Assembly: GCF_014844135.1 (NCBI RefSeq)
Contig: NZ_CP041403.1
Location: 1,178,001 to 1,242,000 of the forward strand
Source: Arcobacter sp. FWKO B
GTDB lineage: Bacteria > Campylobacterota > Campylobacteria > Campylobacterales > Arcobacteraceae
Length of the DNA: 64,000 nucleotides
Reading direction: 5' to 3'
Shown here: in pieces, positions 44,013-48,881 of the stretch
Position numbering within the stretch: the stretch's first letter is position 1
Layout of the letters: each line of letters starts with the position of its first letter
The notes under the pieces: model-generated
The model's input: only the letters and a program-made list of their open reading frames with translations
Databases searched by the model: none
What the model was told of the DNA's origin: nothing
Made by a program: the position numbers and the translations under genes

Positions 44013-44447
44013 ATGACTTATTATAGTTATGAAGAATTTATAAGTGATCTTAAATCACTAAAACTTCCCCTAGAAGTTTACTCACCAGAGGCTATAGTAT
44101 CTATAGCTAGAGGTGGGGTAACTTTTGGACACTTTCTATCTAGTATGCTTGATATTAGAGAACTTTACTCTATCAATTCAATACATTATAACGATACAAA
44201 AAAACTTGATACTATAGATATTTTTAATATTCCAGACTTACATACATATACAAAAATATTACTTGTAGATGATATAGTAGATAGTGGGGATACATTAGAT
44301 ACCATTGTAAAAATATTAAAAGAAAAGTACCCAAAACTTCAAATAAAAACAGTTTCAATTTTTTATAAAAAAACTGCCAAAATACAACCAGATTTTATGG
44401 TAAAAGAGGCACATGACTGGATAGAGTTTTTTTGGGAAGAATTTTAA
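44013..44447 (+). CDS. Phosphoribosyltransferase-fold protein
   Basis: A 144-residue protein with the PRPP-binding loop ILLVDDIVDSGDTLDTI and the N-terminal SIARGGVTFGHFLS that forms the PPi loop. It resembles hypoxanthine/xanthine-guanine phosphoribosyltransferases of the Gpt type, but the base cannot be told. It follows typA by 5 bases and its end overlaps the convergent diguanylate cyclase gene by 4 bases. Confidence 0.9.
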   Translation: MTYYSYEEFISDLKSLKLPLEVYSPEAIVSIARGGVTFGHFLSSMLDIRELYSINSIHYNDTKKLDTIDIFNIPDLHTYTKILLVDDIVDSGDTLDTIVKILKEKYPKLQIKTVSIFYKKTAKIQPDFMVKEAHDWIEFFWEEF

Positions 44448-45952
44448 CTATTTATATATTCTACAACCTGATTTCTTCCTTGTGTTTTTGCTCGATAAAG
44501 AGCACTATCAGCTCTTGAAATGGCACATTGGATCTCTGTATCACTAATATTAAGGGCACTTACTCCAATACTTACAGTAAATTTTAATAACCCATTTTCA
44601 TTAGTATTTATGCTCAATTTTTCAATTGATTTGATGATATCTAATCCTTTCTTAAAAGCTTGTTGTTGATTGGTCTCAAGTAATAATATTACAAATTCTT
44701 CCCCACCGATTCTTGCAAAAACATCATTATCTCTCAAAAGAGAAGAGATTGTATGTGAAAAAAGTTTAAGTGCTTTATCTCCGACATTGTGCCCATATGT
44801 ATCATTAATACTTTTGAAGTGATCAATATCAAGCATAAGCAAAGAGCATAAAGTATGGTGTCTTTTTACTCTACTTAACTCTTTATTTGCAATATCAAAG
44901 AAATATCTTCTATTATAAAGTCCAGTTAATTGATCTGTTGTTGCTAATGTTTCAAGTAAGATTTGTTGTTGTTGAATATTATTTAGTGTATTTTTTACAA
45001 GAGTAGTAGCTTTTCCTATTTCGTCAATTTCTTTTAATAACTCTTTTTTTATAGATATGTTTTCTTCACCATTTTCAATGTTATGAAGTGCATTAGTAAT
45101 CCTTACAATAGGTGCAAAAACGAAAATATATAGTAAAATACCTAAAATAGTAAATAATAAACCAATAATTAAAACAAATACAACTATCTTATGTTTAGAA
45201 TTATCAGCACTTTGTGAAATCCCTAATACCTGCTCTATACCAGATTCTGTTGCATGTAAAGTTGTTGTGTTTACAGTTTGTTGAATAGAATCTATTATTT
45301 CAGATTTTAATTTCCATAATAAATTAGCTTCTGTTTCCATAATGTGTGCATTTAATAATAGCCCTGCCAAATGATACATTTGTTTAAATATAGGAGATGA
45401 TTTAATTTCACTATTCATATTATCCATAGATAGAATGACCAAATTAATATTTGACAAATGTTTTTTATCAATAATAAGTTTAATAGAATCTCTAATAACA
45501 CTAAATTGTGAATCTAGAGTTAAATTTTGTATAACTTCAAAAGATGTAGATACATTAGTTAGAATAATATCTACTTGATTTTTTAGGAAATATATGTTTT
45601 TTATATCTTTCCAAATCTCATTTACTTCACTTTTTAGTTTTGGGTTTTCATCAAATATTGGGTCAAACGCTATCACCTGAGCAGTAACTCTAGCTTTTAA
45701 TCTCTCTTTAGTATCAGAAGATGAATATATTATATCACCAGCAGTTTTTAGTCTGTTCATATTAACAACAAATCTTATTTTTGAGGCAATATCTAAGAAT
45801 GATTCATCTTTTGCTTTACTTGATAATGTAGATATTTTGTTTTGAGAAACAATAAGCTCATAGGCAAGATATGTAAATAAAATTACAGTTATAAAAGTTA
45901 TAATAAAAAAAGCATGTAAACTTTTCAAACTAACCTCTTTAGTATATTTCAA
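44444..45952 (-). CDS. Membrane-bound diguanylate cyclase (GGDEF)
   Basis: A 502-residue protein: transmembrane helices at about 12-30 and 252-276 enclose a helical periplasmic sensor region, then a HAMP-like linker and a C-terminal GGDEF domain with the active motif RIGGEEF. An inhibitory-site RxxD (RDND) lies five residues before it, so product inhibition should work. It makes cyclic di-GMP. Its start lies within the end of the substrate-binding-protein gene (14-base overlap), indicating coupled translation and a likely sensory partnership. Confidence 0.95.
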   Translation of the reverse strand: MKYTKEVSLKSLHAFFIITFITVILFTYLAYELIVSQNKISTLSSKAKDESFLDIASKIRFVVNMNRLKTAGDIIYSSSDTKERLKARVTAQVIAFDPIFDENPKLKSEVNEIWKDIKNIYFLKNQVDIILTNVSTSFEVIQNLTLDSQFSVIRDSIKLIIDKKHLSNINLVILSMDNMNSEIKSSPIFKQMYHLAGLLLNAHIMETEANLLWKLKSEIIDSIQQTVNTTTLHATESGIEQVLGISQSADNSKHKIVVFVLIIGLLFTILGILLYIFVFAPIVRITNALHNIENGEENISIKKELLKEIDEIGKATTLVKNTLNNIQQQQILLETLATTDQLTGLYNRRYFFDIANKELSRVKRHHTLCSLLMLDIDHFKSINDTYGHNVGDKALKLFSHTISSLLRDNDVFARIGGEEFVILLLETNQQQAFKKGLDIIKSIEKLSINTNENGLLKFTVSIGVSALNISDTEIQCAISRADSALYRAKTQGRNQVVEYINS

Positions 45953-46685
45953 AAGGGAAATATTTTCTACTTATTTTGCCAAGAGTACCATTTTGATGAA
46001 TTTTGCTAATAACTTCATTTACTTTTATTTGTAGTTCTTTATTATTCTTTGTAATCCCGATATAAGCATAGCTAACATCAGGTGAATTTGGAATATCAGG
46101 TAAATTTCCAATTATCTCAAACTTATCTCCATTATTTCCTGTAGTTAGAAAAAAAAATGCACTAAGTGTATCTCCAAATACTACATCAGCACTGCCATCA
46201 ACAAGTAGGTTTACAGAATCATCAAAAGTACTAGTAGTTACAACTTTAGTACTATGAGCTGAGAGATTTTTTGCATAAGTTTCTTGAATTGTACCACCTT
46301 GAATTGCAATCGTCTTATTTATAAAGAAATCTTTATTATTATAAAAAGTACCCATTTTACCTATTACTACAGGTTTTGCTCTATAGTAAGCTATAGAAAA
46401 ATCAATTTTTTCTTCTCTTTGTTGTGTTTTAGCCATACTAGCAACTATTAAATCAATTTTACCATCACTCATAGCAGGAATTAATTCATTAAAATCCATC
46501 TCTTTAAAAATACATTTTATTTGCAATTCTTCACATATGGTATTTGCTATATCTATATCAAACCCATATAAATTACCATCTGCATCTTTTGAGCTAAATG
46601 GAGGATAACCAGATTCTATCCCTATATATAACTCCTTAGATAGAGCAAAAGTTGAATAAAACGCCCATTCAAGAGATAAATGCAT
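45939..46685 (-). CDS. Family 3 solute-binding protein, 5' end replaced by an IS30 element
   Basis: The 248-residue frame is a periplasmic amino-acid-type binding protein (LYIGIESGYPPFSSKDADGN, FDIDIANTICEELQIKC, DGKIDLIVASMAKTQQREEKI, QGGTIQETYAK). It now begins inside the end of an IS30 element: ATG CAT TTA come from the IS inverted repeat, and a GGTGA ribosome binding site just upstream is also IS sequence. The original start and signal-peptide region lie on the other side of the IS (47757-47817). The present product lacks a normal signal peptide and is probably not exported. No permease genes are near; the neighbour is a diguanylate cyclase, so the protein was probably a sensory subunit. 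Confidence 0.9.
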   Translation of the reverse strand: MHLSLEWAFYSTFALSKELYIGIESGYPPFSSKDADGNLYGFDIDIANTICEELQIKCIFKEMDFNELIPAMSDGKIDLIVASMAKTQQREEKIDFSIAYYRAKPVVIGKMGTFYNNKDFFINKTIAIQGGTIQETYAKNLSAHSTKVVTTSTFDDSVNLLVDGSADVVFGDTLSAFFFLTTGNNGDKFEIIGNLPDIPNSPDVSYAYIGITKNNKELQIKVNEVISKIHQNGTLGKISRKYFPFEIY

Positions 46686-47756
46686 ATTTTCACCAAATTA
46701 AGCTGTTAAGACTTTTGCAACTTTAGCATAAAAAACCTCAGATGGAGTTTTATATCCAAGTGATTTTCTAGGTCTGTTATTTAATCTATTTTGGATTTCT
46801 CTAATTTCTTTTCTTTTCACTTTAGTGAAATCTGTCTGTTTGGGTAAATATTGTCGTATTAGACCATTTGTATGTTCATTTAATCCTCTCTCCCAAGAGT
46901 GATATGGATTTGCAAAGTAAAACTTTGTATCTAATGCTTTTGATACATTTTCATGATATGCAAACTCTTTGCCATTATCTGATGTAATGGTATGCGTAAG
47001 TTCTCTTATTGGATAAAGCATATCTATTAAAGCTTGAGATACAATATCTGCTTTTTTAGAATCAACTTTTTTGATTAATGTAAACTTTGATGCTCTATCA
47101 ACAATAGTAACTAATGCACCAATATGATTTTTACCTATTACTGTATCTATCTCAAAGTCACCAACTCTTTTTTTATGTTCAACAATTTTTGGTCTTTGTT
47201 CAATAGATACTCTGTTTTTAATAACTCCTCTAGAGTTATATTCATTTCCTCTTTTATGATACTTTTTATTCTTATATCTGAGTTTTAAATATAGTTTTCC
47301 ACCGTGATATTTGTTCTTGTAAATATACTGATAAATAGTTTCATGGGATACCCAAGGCAGTTTCTTCAATTTCATAACTCCAGATATTTGTTCAGGAGAC
47401 CAATCCTCTTTAAGCTTATCTTTGATGTAGTTCATAACTTTTCTAGTAAGCTTTAAATGTTTGGTTTTATATTTGTGTCTATAAAAACTCAACTGTTCTG
47501 CAACTTCAGGTTTATAGTCGCCTTCAGAACTATTTCTTTTTAGTTCTCTACTAATTGTAGATTGTGAAGTACCTAAACAATCAGCAATTTCCTTTTGAGT
47601 ATATCCAACCTTAATATAAGCATATATTTGGTATCTTTCTTTTAGGGTTAACTGTGTGAATTTCTTCATAAATATTTTCCTATTTTGTGGTGAAAAAGGA
47701 TAACAAAATATTTGTTAACCCCTCCTATAACCTTTACTTTAAGAAAATATGCATTT
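46678..47756 (-). mobile_element. IS30-family insertion sequence
   Basis: An element of about 1079 bases bounded by perfect 14-base inverted repeats (AAATGCATATTTTC at 46678-46691, its complement at 47743-47756), flanked by AT on both sides, consistent with a 2-base target duplication. It carries one transposase gene. The element has landed inside the signal-peptide region of a substrate-binding-protein gene. The intact ends and intact transposase suggest a recent insertion. Confidence 0.88.
46698..47669 (-). CDS. IS30-family transposase
   Basis: An intact 323-residue DDE transposase: N-terminal helix-turn-helix (LTLKERYQIYAYIKVGYTQ, KEIADCLGTSQSTISRELKR), then the catalytic core with FEIDTVIGK (first Asp), ITSDNGKEFAYHE (second Asp) and the Glu-containing HSWERGLNEHTNGLIRQYLP segment typical of IS30. 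The length is normal. It is read in the same direction as the gene it interrupts. Confidence 0.95.
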   Translation of the reverse strand: MKKFTQLTLKERYQIYAYIKVGYTQKEIADCLGTSQSTISRELKRNSSEGDYKPEVAEQLSFYRHKYKTKHLKLTRKVMNYIKDKLKEDWSPEQISGVMKLKKLPWVSHETIYQYIYKNKYHGGKLYLKLRYKNKKYHKRGNEYNSRGVIKNRVSIEQRPKIVEHKKRVGDFEIDTVIGKNHIGALVTIVDRASKFTLIKKVDSKKADIVSQALIDMLYPIRELTHTITSDNGKEFAYHENVSKALDTKFYFANPYHSWERGLNEHTNGLIRQYLPKQTDFTKVKRKEIREIQNRLNNRPRKSLGYKTPSEVFYAKVAKVLTA

Positions 47757-47817
47757 ATGATTTGAACTTAGGAAATAATAAGCTTAAGAAGAAGATAATT
47801 TTGATATTTAGCATCAT
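47757..47817 (-). pseudogene. Separated 5' end of the solute-binding-protein gene
   Basis: On the minus strand an AAGGAA ribosome binding site (47825-47830) is followed after 7 bases by ATG ATG and 19 codons encoding MMLNIKIIFFLSLLFPKFK. With the IS and one AT copy removed, this joins in frame to SSLEWAFYSTFALSKE of the downstream gene. It is the original start and hydrophobic signal region of the binding protein. The rest of the spacer to 48083 shows only AT-rich sequence and the promoter of the next gene. Confidence 0.85.
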
Positions 47818-48083
47818 TAGATAGTTCCTTATAATTTTTTAATTATAAATTCAGCTTCTTGTATAATATCAAAATATAAATAAAAATAATCTTATTTTGC
47901 ATATAAAACTATTATTAGTTAGTTTCGTTGTTTATTTTTAAAACAAAAGATATAAATATAAAAATTCTTTATAACTATATAGAAAGAGTTTTTTTATATT
48001 GTAGATTAACTGTTATATTCTTGAATAAAAGCAAATAGAGTATATAATACAAAAATTAGATATATTGTATAAAAAGGTATAAA

Positions 48084-48881
48084 ATGGAATCAATTTTAGG
48101 ATTTGCAGGTATATATGCTATGAAGGTAATTGTTGCAATAGCAATATTTGTAATAGGGAAAAAAGTTGCTAGATTTGCCGTTAATATGCTTGTTAAAATA
48201 ATGGAAAAAGCAAAAGTTGATGTTACATTAATAAAATTCTTGGATAATGTTTTATATGCTGTTGCAATAGTAGCTATAGTTTTAGCAGCATTATCACAGC
48301 TTGGAATTGAAACGACATCTTTTATAGCAATACTTGGAGCTGCTGGTTTAGCTGTTGGTTTGGCATTTAAAGACTCATTATCAAATGTAGGTTCAGGCAT
48401 TATGATAATATTGTTTCGTCCATTTAAGGTTGGTGATTTTGTTCAAACTGCAGGAGAAATGGGTATAGTACAAGAGATATCAATATTCCATACAATTATG
48501 AAAACAACAGACAATAAAGTAGTGATTATTCCAAATTCAAAAATTACAAATGATAATATTACAAATTTTACTGGCGAAGATACAAGAAGGTGTGATTTTG
48601 TATTTGGAGTAAGTTATAGTGATGATATAAAACTTGTAAAAGAGACATTAAAAGAGATTATAGATCAAGATCCAAGAGTTTTAAAAGAGCCTGAACCTAT
48701 GGTTGCAGTAAGCGAACTGGGAAATTCAAGTGTAGATTTTACGGTTCGTGCTTGGGTTAAGACTGAGGATTTCTGGAAATTTAGATTTGATACTATTGAA
48801 AAAGTAAAATTAACCTTTGATGAACGGGGGATTTGTATCCCATTTCCTCAAATGGATATCTATTATAAGCAAAAAGACTAA
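48084..48881 (+). CDS. MscS-family mechanosensitive channel
   Basis: A 265-residue small-conductance channel that opens under membrane tension in hypo-osmotic shock. It has two or three N-terminal transmembrane helices, the pore-lining TM3 with Gly/Ala packing (AILGAAGLAVGLAFKDSLSN) and the MscS beta domain (LFRPFKVGDFVQTAGEMG, VVIIPNSKITNDNITNF). The length is close to E. coli MscS. An AAAGG ribosome binding site precedes the ATG. Confidence 0.95.
   Translation: MESILGFAGIYAMKVIVAIAIFVIGKKVARFAVNMLVKIMEKAKVDVTLIKFLDNVLYAVAIVAIVLAALSQLGIETTSFIAILGAAGLAVGLAFKDSLSNVGSGIMIILFRPFKVGDFVQTAGEMGIVQEISIFHTIMKTTDNKVVIIPNSKITNDNITNFTGEDTRRCDFVFGVSYSDDIKLVKETLKEIIDQDPRVLKEPEPMVAVSELGNSSVDFTVRAWVKTEDFWKFRFDTIEKVKLTFDERGICIPFPQMDIYYKQKD

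What the first reader, a model, noticed from the sequence alone, without database searches (positions are those of the whole stretch)
45939..47830. IS30 element has cut a binding-protein gene in its signal region and supplied a new ribosome binding site and ATG
Removing the element (46678-47756) and one AT copy joins MMLNIKIIFFLSLLFPKFK to SSLEWAFYSTFALSKE in one frame, preceded by a proper AAGGAA site. The current frame starts at an ATG in the IS inverted repeat behind an IS-borne GGTGA. The binding protein is therefore probably still made but no longer exported, which should uncouple it from the membrane diguanylate cyclase encoded 14 bases into its end. An automatic annotation would report an intact gene.
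Basis: partly seen in the sequence, partly recalled or inferred. Interest (0 to 1): 0.75.

Follow-up and report, generated by a model that had tools for sequence, protein, structure and literature searches.

The report
IS30 cuts off a signal peptide
A jumping gene has landed in the export-signal end of a gene for an amino-acid-binding protein, leaving the rest of the protein intact behind a start signal that the jumping gene itself carries; the protein is therefore probably stranded inside the cell and cut off from the membrane signalling enzyme encoded next to it, a neat but basically ordinary insertion event.

Summary
The core observation is right: an IS30-family element splits a periplasmic-type binding-protein gene inside its signal-peptide codons, and today's ORF begins at an ATG in the element, behind an element-borne GGTGA site. 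Several details are wrong. By comparison with two other full copies in the genome, the element is 46662-47772 (1111 bp, 30-bp imperfect inverted repeats) with a 3-bp AAA duplication, not 46678-47756 with AT. The true empty allele reads MMLNIKIIFFLSLLFYSTFALSKELYIG. An uninterrupted orthologue in a congener (MKLLTFLILLFYSTFTLSKELNIG, about 85% identical, same flanking genes) confirms this. The current N-terminus (MHLSLEWA...) has no signal-peptide character; the mature domain is complete. The diguanylate cyclase does not start inside the binding-protein gene: its likely TTG start lies after the stop. Expression of a stranded cytoplasmic protein, by read-through transcription and reinitiation 12 nt after the transposase stop, is plausible but untested. 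Its link to the cyclase rests on conserved gene order and analogy (NspS-MbaA, TorT-TorS). ISAba1-adeS is a published precedent. New member of a known kind.

The parts
46662..47772 (-). IS30-family element, 1111 bp
   Evidence: Ends set by three full copies in the genome and a 77% relative in another genus whose similarity also runs to the last base
46659..46661 (.). Target duplication AAA, copy 1
   Evidence: other copies have CTT and ATT
47773..47775 (.). Target duplication AAA, copy 2
46662..46691 (.). Terminal inverted repeat CGCCCATTCAAGAGATAAATGCATATTTTC (end at the 3' side of the transposase gene)
47743..47772 (.). Terminal inverted repeat (transposase 5' side): CCTAAGTTCAAATCATAAATGCATATTTTC on the minus strand
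46698..47669 (-). Intact IS30 transposase, 323 aa
   Evidence: NF033563 E 3e-94
46690..46694 (-). Element-borne Shine-Dalgarno-like GGTGA
   Evidence: -7.4 kcal/mol with the genome's own 16S tail GATCACCTCCTTT
45939..46685 (-). Current beheaded binding-protein ORF, 248 aa; first 8 codons (MHLSLEWA, 46662-46685) are element DNA
45939..46637 (-). Mature family-3 solute-binding protein (KELYIG... to stop), complete
   Evidence: PF00497 E 3e-37; 85% identical to congener; PDB lysine/arginine/ornithine-binding proteins E about 1e-31
47755..47817 (-). Stranded original start: MMLNIKIIFFLSLLF followed by element-coded PKFKS and stop
47825..47830 (-). Original ribosome-binding site AAGGAA
   Evidence: AAGG also precedes the congener's start
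44444..45928 (-). Membrane diguanylate cyclase, next gene of the operon, TTG start after the binding-protein stop
   Evidence: PF00990 E 1e-47; start by pairing and by alignment with the congener

Best explanation
An IS30-family element transposed into codon 15/16 of a gene for a secreted, amino-acid-type family-3 solute-binding protein, duplicating AAA. The original start now makes only a 20-residue signal-like peptide ending in element-coded PKFKS. The element lies in the same orientation as the gene, so transcripts from the original or the element's promoter can run through it; ribosomes finishing the transposase can reinitiate 12 nt downstream at the element's GGTGA-ATG, which is in frame and adds MHLSLEWA. 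The product is the complete mature domain without a usable Sec signal, so it should stay in the cytoplasm; the membrane cyclase downstream is intact and would lose its likely periplasmic partner. Shown: insertion, ends, duplication, empty allele, orthologue, frame. Inferred: expression, cytoplasmic location, partnership with the cyclase.
For: Same outer ends and different 3-bp duplications in three full copies. Congener gene without IS, same neighbours, normal N-terminus. The restored N-terminus aligns without a gap at the junction, LLF-YSTF, in both species. Hydrophobicity 0.85 against 2.67, which falls among the non-secreted-type ORFs of the window. SD pairing -7.4 kcal/mol, stronger than the original -5.2. 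No terminator-like site in 45900-48100. Mature-domain dN/dS 0.13 between the species, cyclase 0.12. Residues that bind the amino and carboxyl groups in the LAO protein (R77, D161, T121, S70, Y14; positions from my own knowledge) are kept in the alignment.
Against: No transcript, protein or localisation data. About 10% of random ATGs in the window have an equally good upstream site. dN/dS sums over both lineages and mostly predates the insertion, so it does not show that the beheaded gene is still selected. The sensor domain's resemblance to TorS is below significance (best E 0.11).
Confidence: 0.6

Rival explanations
1. Plain gene inactivation: the beheaded ORF is little or not translated and is a pseudogene that has not yet decayed; the open frame with a start and GGTGA is a one-in-three accident of the element's end sequence.
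For: The ATG lies in the palindromic ATGCAT of the inverted repeat, so every copy has it; it makes only short ORFs at other ends (L003, 12 aa; L004, 14 aa; L006, 9 aa). IS transposases are usually weakly expressed (general knowledge).
Against: Good ribosome site, coupling distance of 12 nt, same orientation, no terminator, and no stop or frameshift in the remaining 248 codons.
Confidence: 0.33
2. The binding protein never served the cyclase but fed an ABC transporter or had another role; its loss does not affect cyclic-di-GMP.
For: The closest named families are transporter binding proteins; co-location in an operon is not proof of interaction.
Against: No permease or ATPase gene adjoins in either species; binding protein and cyclase are present together in G000 and G001 and absent together from the other relatives searched; the cyclase has a large all-helical periplasmic domain weakly like TorS, a domain type read through a binding protein.
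Confidence: 0.35
3. One reading: element 46678-47756, AT duplication, ancestral protein MMLNIKIIFFLSLLFPKFK-SSLEWAFYSTFALSKE.
For: AT occurs at both places and the frame also closes.
Against: The extra bases recur at other copies in unrelated genes and are absent from the congener.
Confidence: 0.01

Closest known systems
ISAba1 in adeS of Acinetobacter baumannii (PMC3498117)
   Same: IS inside a signalling gene; the remaining 3' part is predicted as a cytoplasmic truncated protein made from IS-derived expression signals
   Different: There an outward promoter (Pout) drives it and effects were shown by experiment; here the element supplies ribosome site and ATG, and nothing is tested
NspS-MbaA of Vibrio cholerae (PMC8079147)
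   Same: Periplasmic binding protein that controls a membrane cyclic-di-GMP enzyme; deleting nspS locks the enzyme and abolishes the polyamine response
   Different: Polyamine-type binding protein and a GGDEF-EAL enzyme; here a family-3 amino-acid-type protein and a GGDEF-only enzyme
ArtI and STM1987 of Salmonella (in review PMC8846402)
   Same: Amino-acid-type periplasmic binding protein needed for L-arginine sensing by a membrane cyclase
   Different: STM1987 senses through a dCACHE_1 domain; here the periplasmic domain is predicted all-helical
IS30 family (IS30; PMC9333248)
   Same: Single DDE-type transposase, terminal inverted repeats, short duplication
   Different: E. coli IS30 makes 2-bp repeats; this element makes 3-bp repeats

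Membership tests
IS30-family insertion sequence | Transposase of the family, above curated cut-off | tested here: met
   NF033563 315 bits, cut-off 80
IS30-family insertion sequence | Terminal inverted repeats of 20-30 bp and short target duplication | tested here: met
   30-bp imperfect repeats, 3-bp duplications at three copies
IS30-family insertion sequence | Transposition through circle intermediates | not testable with these tools
   Needs experiment
Family-3 extracellular solute-binding protein (PF00497) | Complete domain above gathering score | tested here: met
   127.8 bits, cut-off 26.4, profile 2-131 of 132
Family-3 extracellular solute-binding protein (PF00497) | N-terminal export signal | tested here: not met
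   Present in the congener and the empty allele, absent from the current ORF by hydrophobicity; no SignalP-type predictor available
Lysine/arginine/ornithine ABC binding protein (TIGR01096) | Above curated cut-off | tested here: not met
   167.8 bits, cut-off 256: related, not a named member
Diguanylate cyclase | GGDEF domain with catalytic motif | tested here: met
   PF00990 161.9 bits, GGEEF motif in the sequence
NspS-MbaA-like binding-protein/cyclase pair | Adjacent genes on one strand, kept together | tested here: met
   Both genomes that have them
NspS-MbaA-like binding-protein/cyclase pair | Physical or genetic interaction | not testable with these tools
   Needs experiment
TorS-type sensor domain | Significant structural match | tested here: inconclusive
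   Top hit TorS 3i9y, probability 0.99, TM 0.47, but E 0.11 and a shallow model (pLDDT 69)

The most novel reading that the evidence does not exclude
The element's end works as a portable outward ribosome-site-plus-start module: two of its three full copies (binding protein here, secretin in L002) leave the downstream half of the host gene in frame with the same MHLSLEWA start, and all three copies lie in the sense orientation, so the element may regularly turn host genes into separately made halves.
Probability: 0.07. Interest if true: 0.5.

Novelty: new member of a known kind. Interest (0 to 1): 0.3.

Why it matters
It is a clean case of an insertion that an automatic annotation would pass as an intact ATG-to-stop gene although the protein has lost its export signal. 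If the partnership with the cyclase is real, the strain is a natural test of what a cyclic-di-GMP enzyme does without its periplasmic input. As biology of insertion sequences it is ordinary.

Tried and rejected
Overlap of the cyclase start with the binding-protein end (rejected). Dating the insertion from IS copies: this copy differs from the two identical ones at 21 sites (15 synonymous and 4 amino-acid-changing codons), so it is a separately evolving or converted copy rather than one that decayed in place; no date follows. Wider search for the cyclase's sensor domain: only the window's own genome hit among 298 phylum genomes. Foldseek of the sensor domain: no significant hit. The G003 contig ends beside the MscS gene, so the locus cannot be read there.

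Full report
What is there. The region is in a 2.24-Mb complete genome (one contig; window = C1:1178001-1242000). The congener that holds the same locus is a Campylobacterota metagenome-assembled genome (Epsilonproteobacteria bacterium UBA6211). On the minus strand lie, in order, a stranded original start (47817), an IS30 element, a binding-protein ORF (45939-46685) and a membrane diguanylate cyclase; the convergent neighbour is a phosphoribosyltransferase-like gene and the divergent one an MscS-type gene (these two names are my reading of the sequence).

Element ends. The genome holds three full copies and three fragments of the element. Each copy is flanked by its own 3-bp duplication: AAA here, CTT in L002, ATT in L003. 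A 77% identical relative in another genus also aligns to the last base, 1111. The element is therefore 46662-47772, with 30-bp imperfect inverted repeats.

Empty allele. Removing 1111 bp and one AAA gives MMLNIKIIFFLSLLFYSTFALSKELYIGIESGYPPF.... A congener carries the uninterrupted gene with the same neighbours on both sides: MKLLTFLILLFYSTFTLSKELNIGVESGYPPF...; it has no copy of this IS at the threshold used. Both are ordinary short signal peptides and they align without a gap across the insertion point. The same PKFKS-stop and MHLSLEWA occur where the L002 copy splits a secretin gene into 401 and 107 residues.

What the current gene can make. The ORF starts ATG CAT TTA TCT CTT GAA TGG GCG, all element DNA, then continues in the host frame at TTT TAT TCA. 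The mature domain is whole. Its N-terminus has a maximum 10-residue hydrophobicity of 0.85, against 2.67 for the restored and 2.71 for the congener N-terminus, and ranks among the ordinary non-hydrophobic N-termini of the window's long ORFs. No dedicated signal-peptide predictor was available. Pairing of the upstream GGTGA with the genome's 16S tail (three copies of GGATCACCTCCTTT) is -7.4 kcal/mol, better than the original site (-5.2) and than 84% of 45 long ATG ORFs; about 10% of random ATGs do as well. The transposase stop is in the same frame, 12 nt upstream, a distance that allows termination-reinitiation (general knowledge). No terminator-like site was found between 45900 and 48100.

The partner. 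The downstream gene is a membrane protein with two hydrophobic segments around a periplasmic domain, and a GGDEF domain. Its start is most likely TTG 45928: the upstream TTG 45952 in the ORF list pairs at -1.3 kcal/mol, while 45928 pairs at -7.0 and aligns with the congener's start. The genes do not overlap. Binding protein and cyclase are found together in two genomes and in none of the other relatives searched (thresholds 1e-40 and 1e-8). The periplasmic domain is predicted all-helical; the best structural neighbours are TorS, PilJ and McpS sensor domains, none significant. TorS has the binding protein TorT as its partner (PMC8534201); McpS was solved with its own small ligands bound, so this is only a lead.

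Known comparators. In V. cholerae, deletion of nspS locks MbaA and removes the polyamine response (PMC8079147). In Salmonella, ArtI is required for arginine sensing by STM1987 (review PMC8846402). In A. baumannii, ISAba1 in adeS leaves a truncated cytoplasmic kinase made from IS signals, shown to act (PMC3498117). The present case combines known kinds of events.

Verdict. Insertion, ends and orthologue are firm. Loss of the export signal is nearly certain. A stranded cytoplasmic binding protein is more likely than not; uncoupling of the cyclase is a fair hypothesis. New member of a known kind, interest 0.3.

Noticed in passing
L002 (genome C1:514794-518872), 298-1503 and 2572-2895: The same element splits a pilus/secretion secretin gene near a gene with a prepilin-type N-methylation motif; the 107-residue C-terminal part is in frame with the element's ATG.
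   Followed up: partly
L003 (genome C1:493348-497426): The third full copy sits about 7 codons into a small gene (MDKDFIF-ITFEGFTFQPD...), duplication ATT; identical in sequence to the L002 copy.
   Followed up: partly
46662-47772: This copy differs from the other two at 21 sites, 7 of them within 34 bp (element 468-501), suggesting gene conversion or a separate arrival.
   Followed up: partly
L004, L005, L006 (genome C1:2033387, 1657382, 1973392): End fragments of the element; L006 holds both ends with the middle deleted, like a mini-element.
   Followed up: no
L009 (genome C1:355936-359265): A 1243-residue open frame with tandem binding-protein-like stretches followed by a membrane segment, the only other weak relative of the binding protein in the genome.
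   Followed up: no
44444-46637: Binding protein and cyclase have lower synonymous divergence from the congener (0.65, 0.75) than four neighbouring genes (0.9-1.5), perhaps a sign of later exchange between the species.
   Followed up: no
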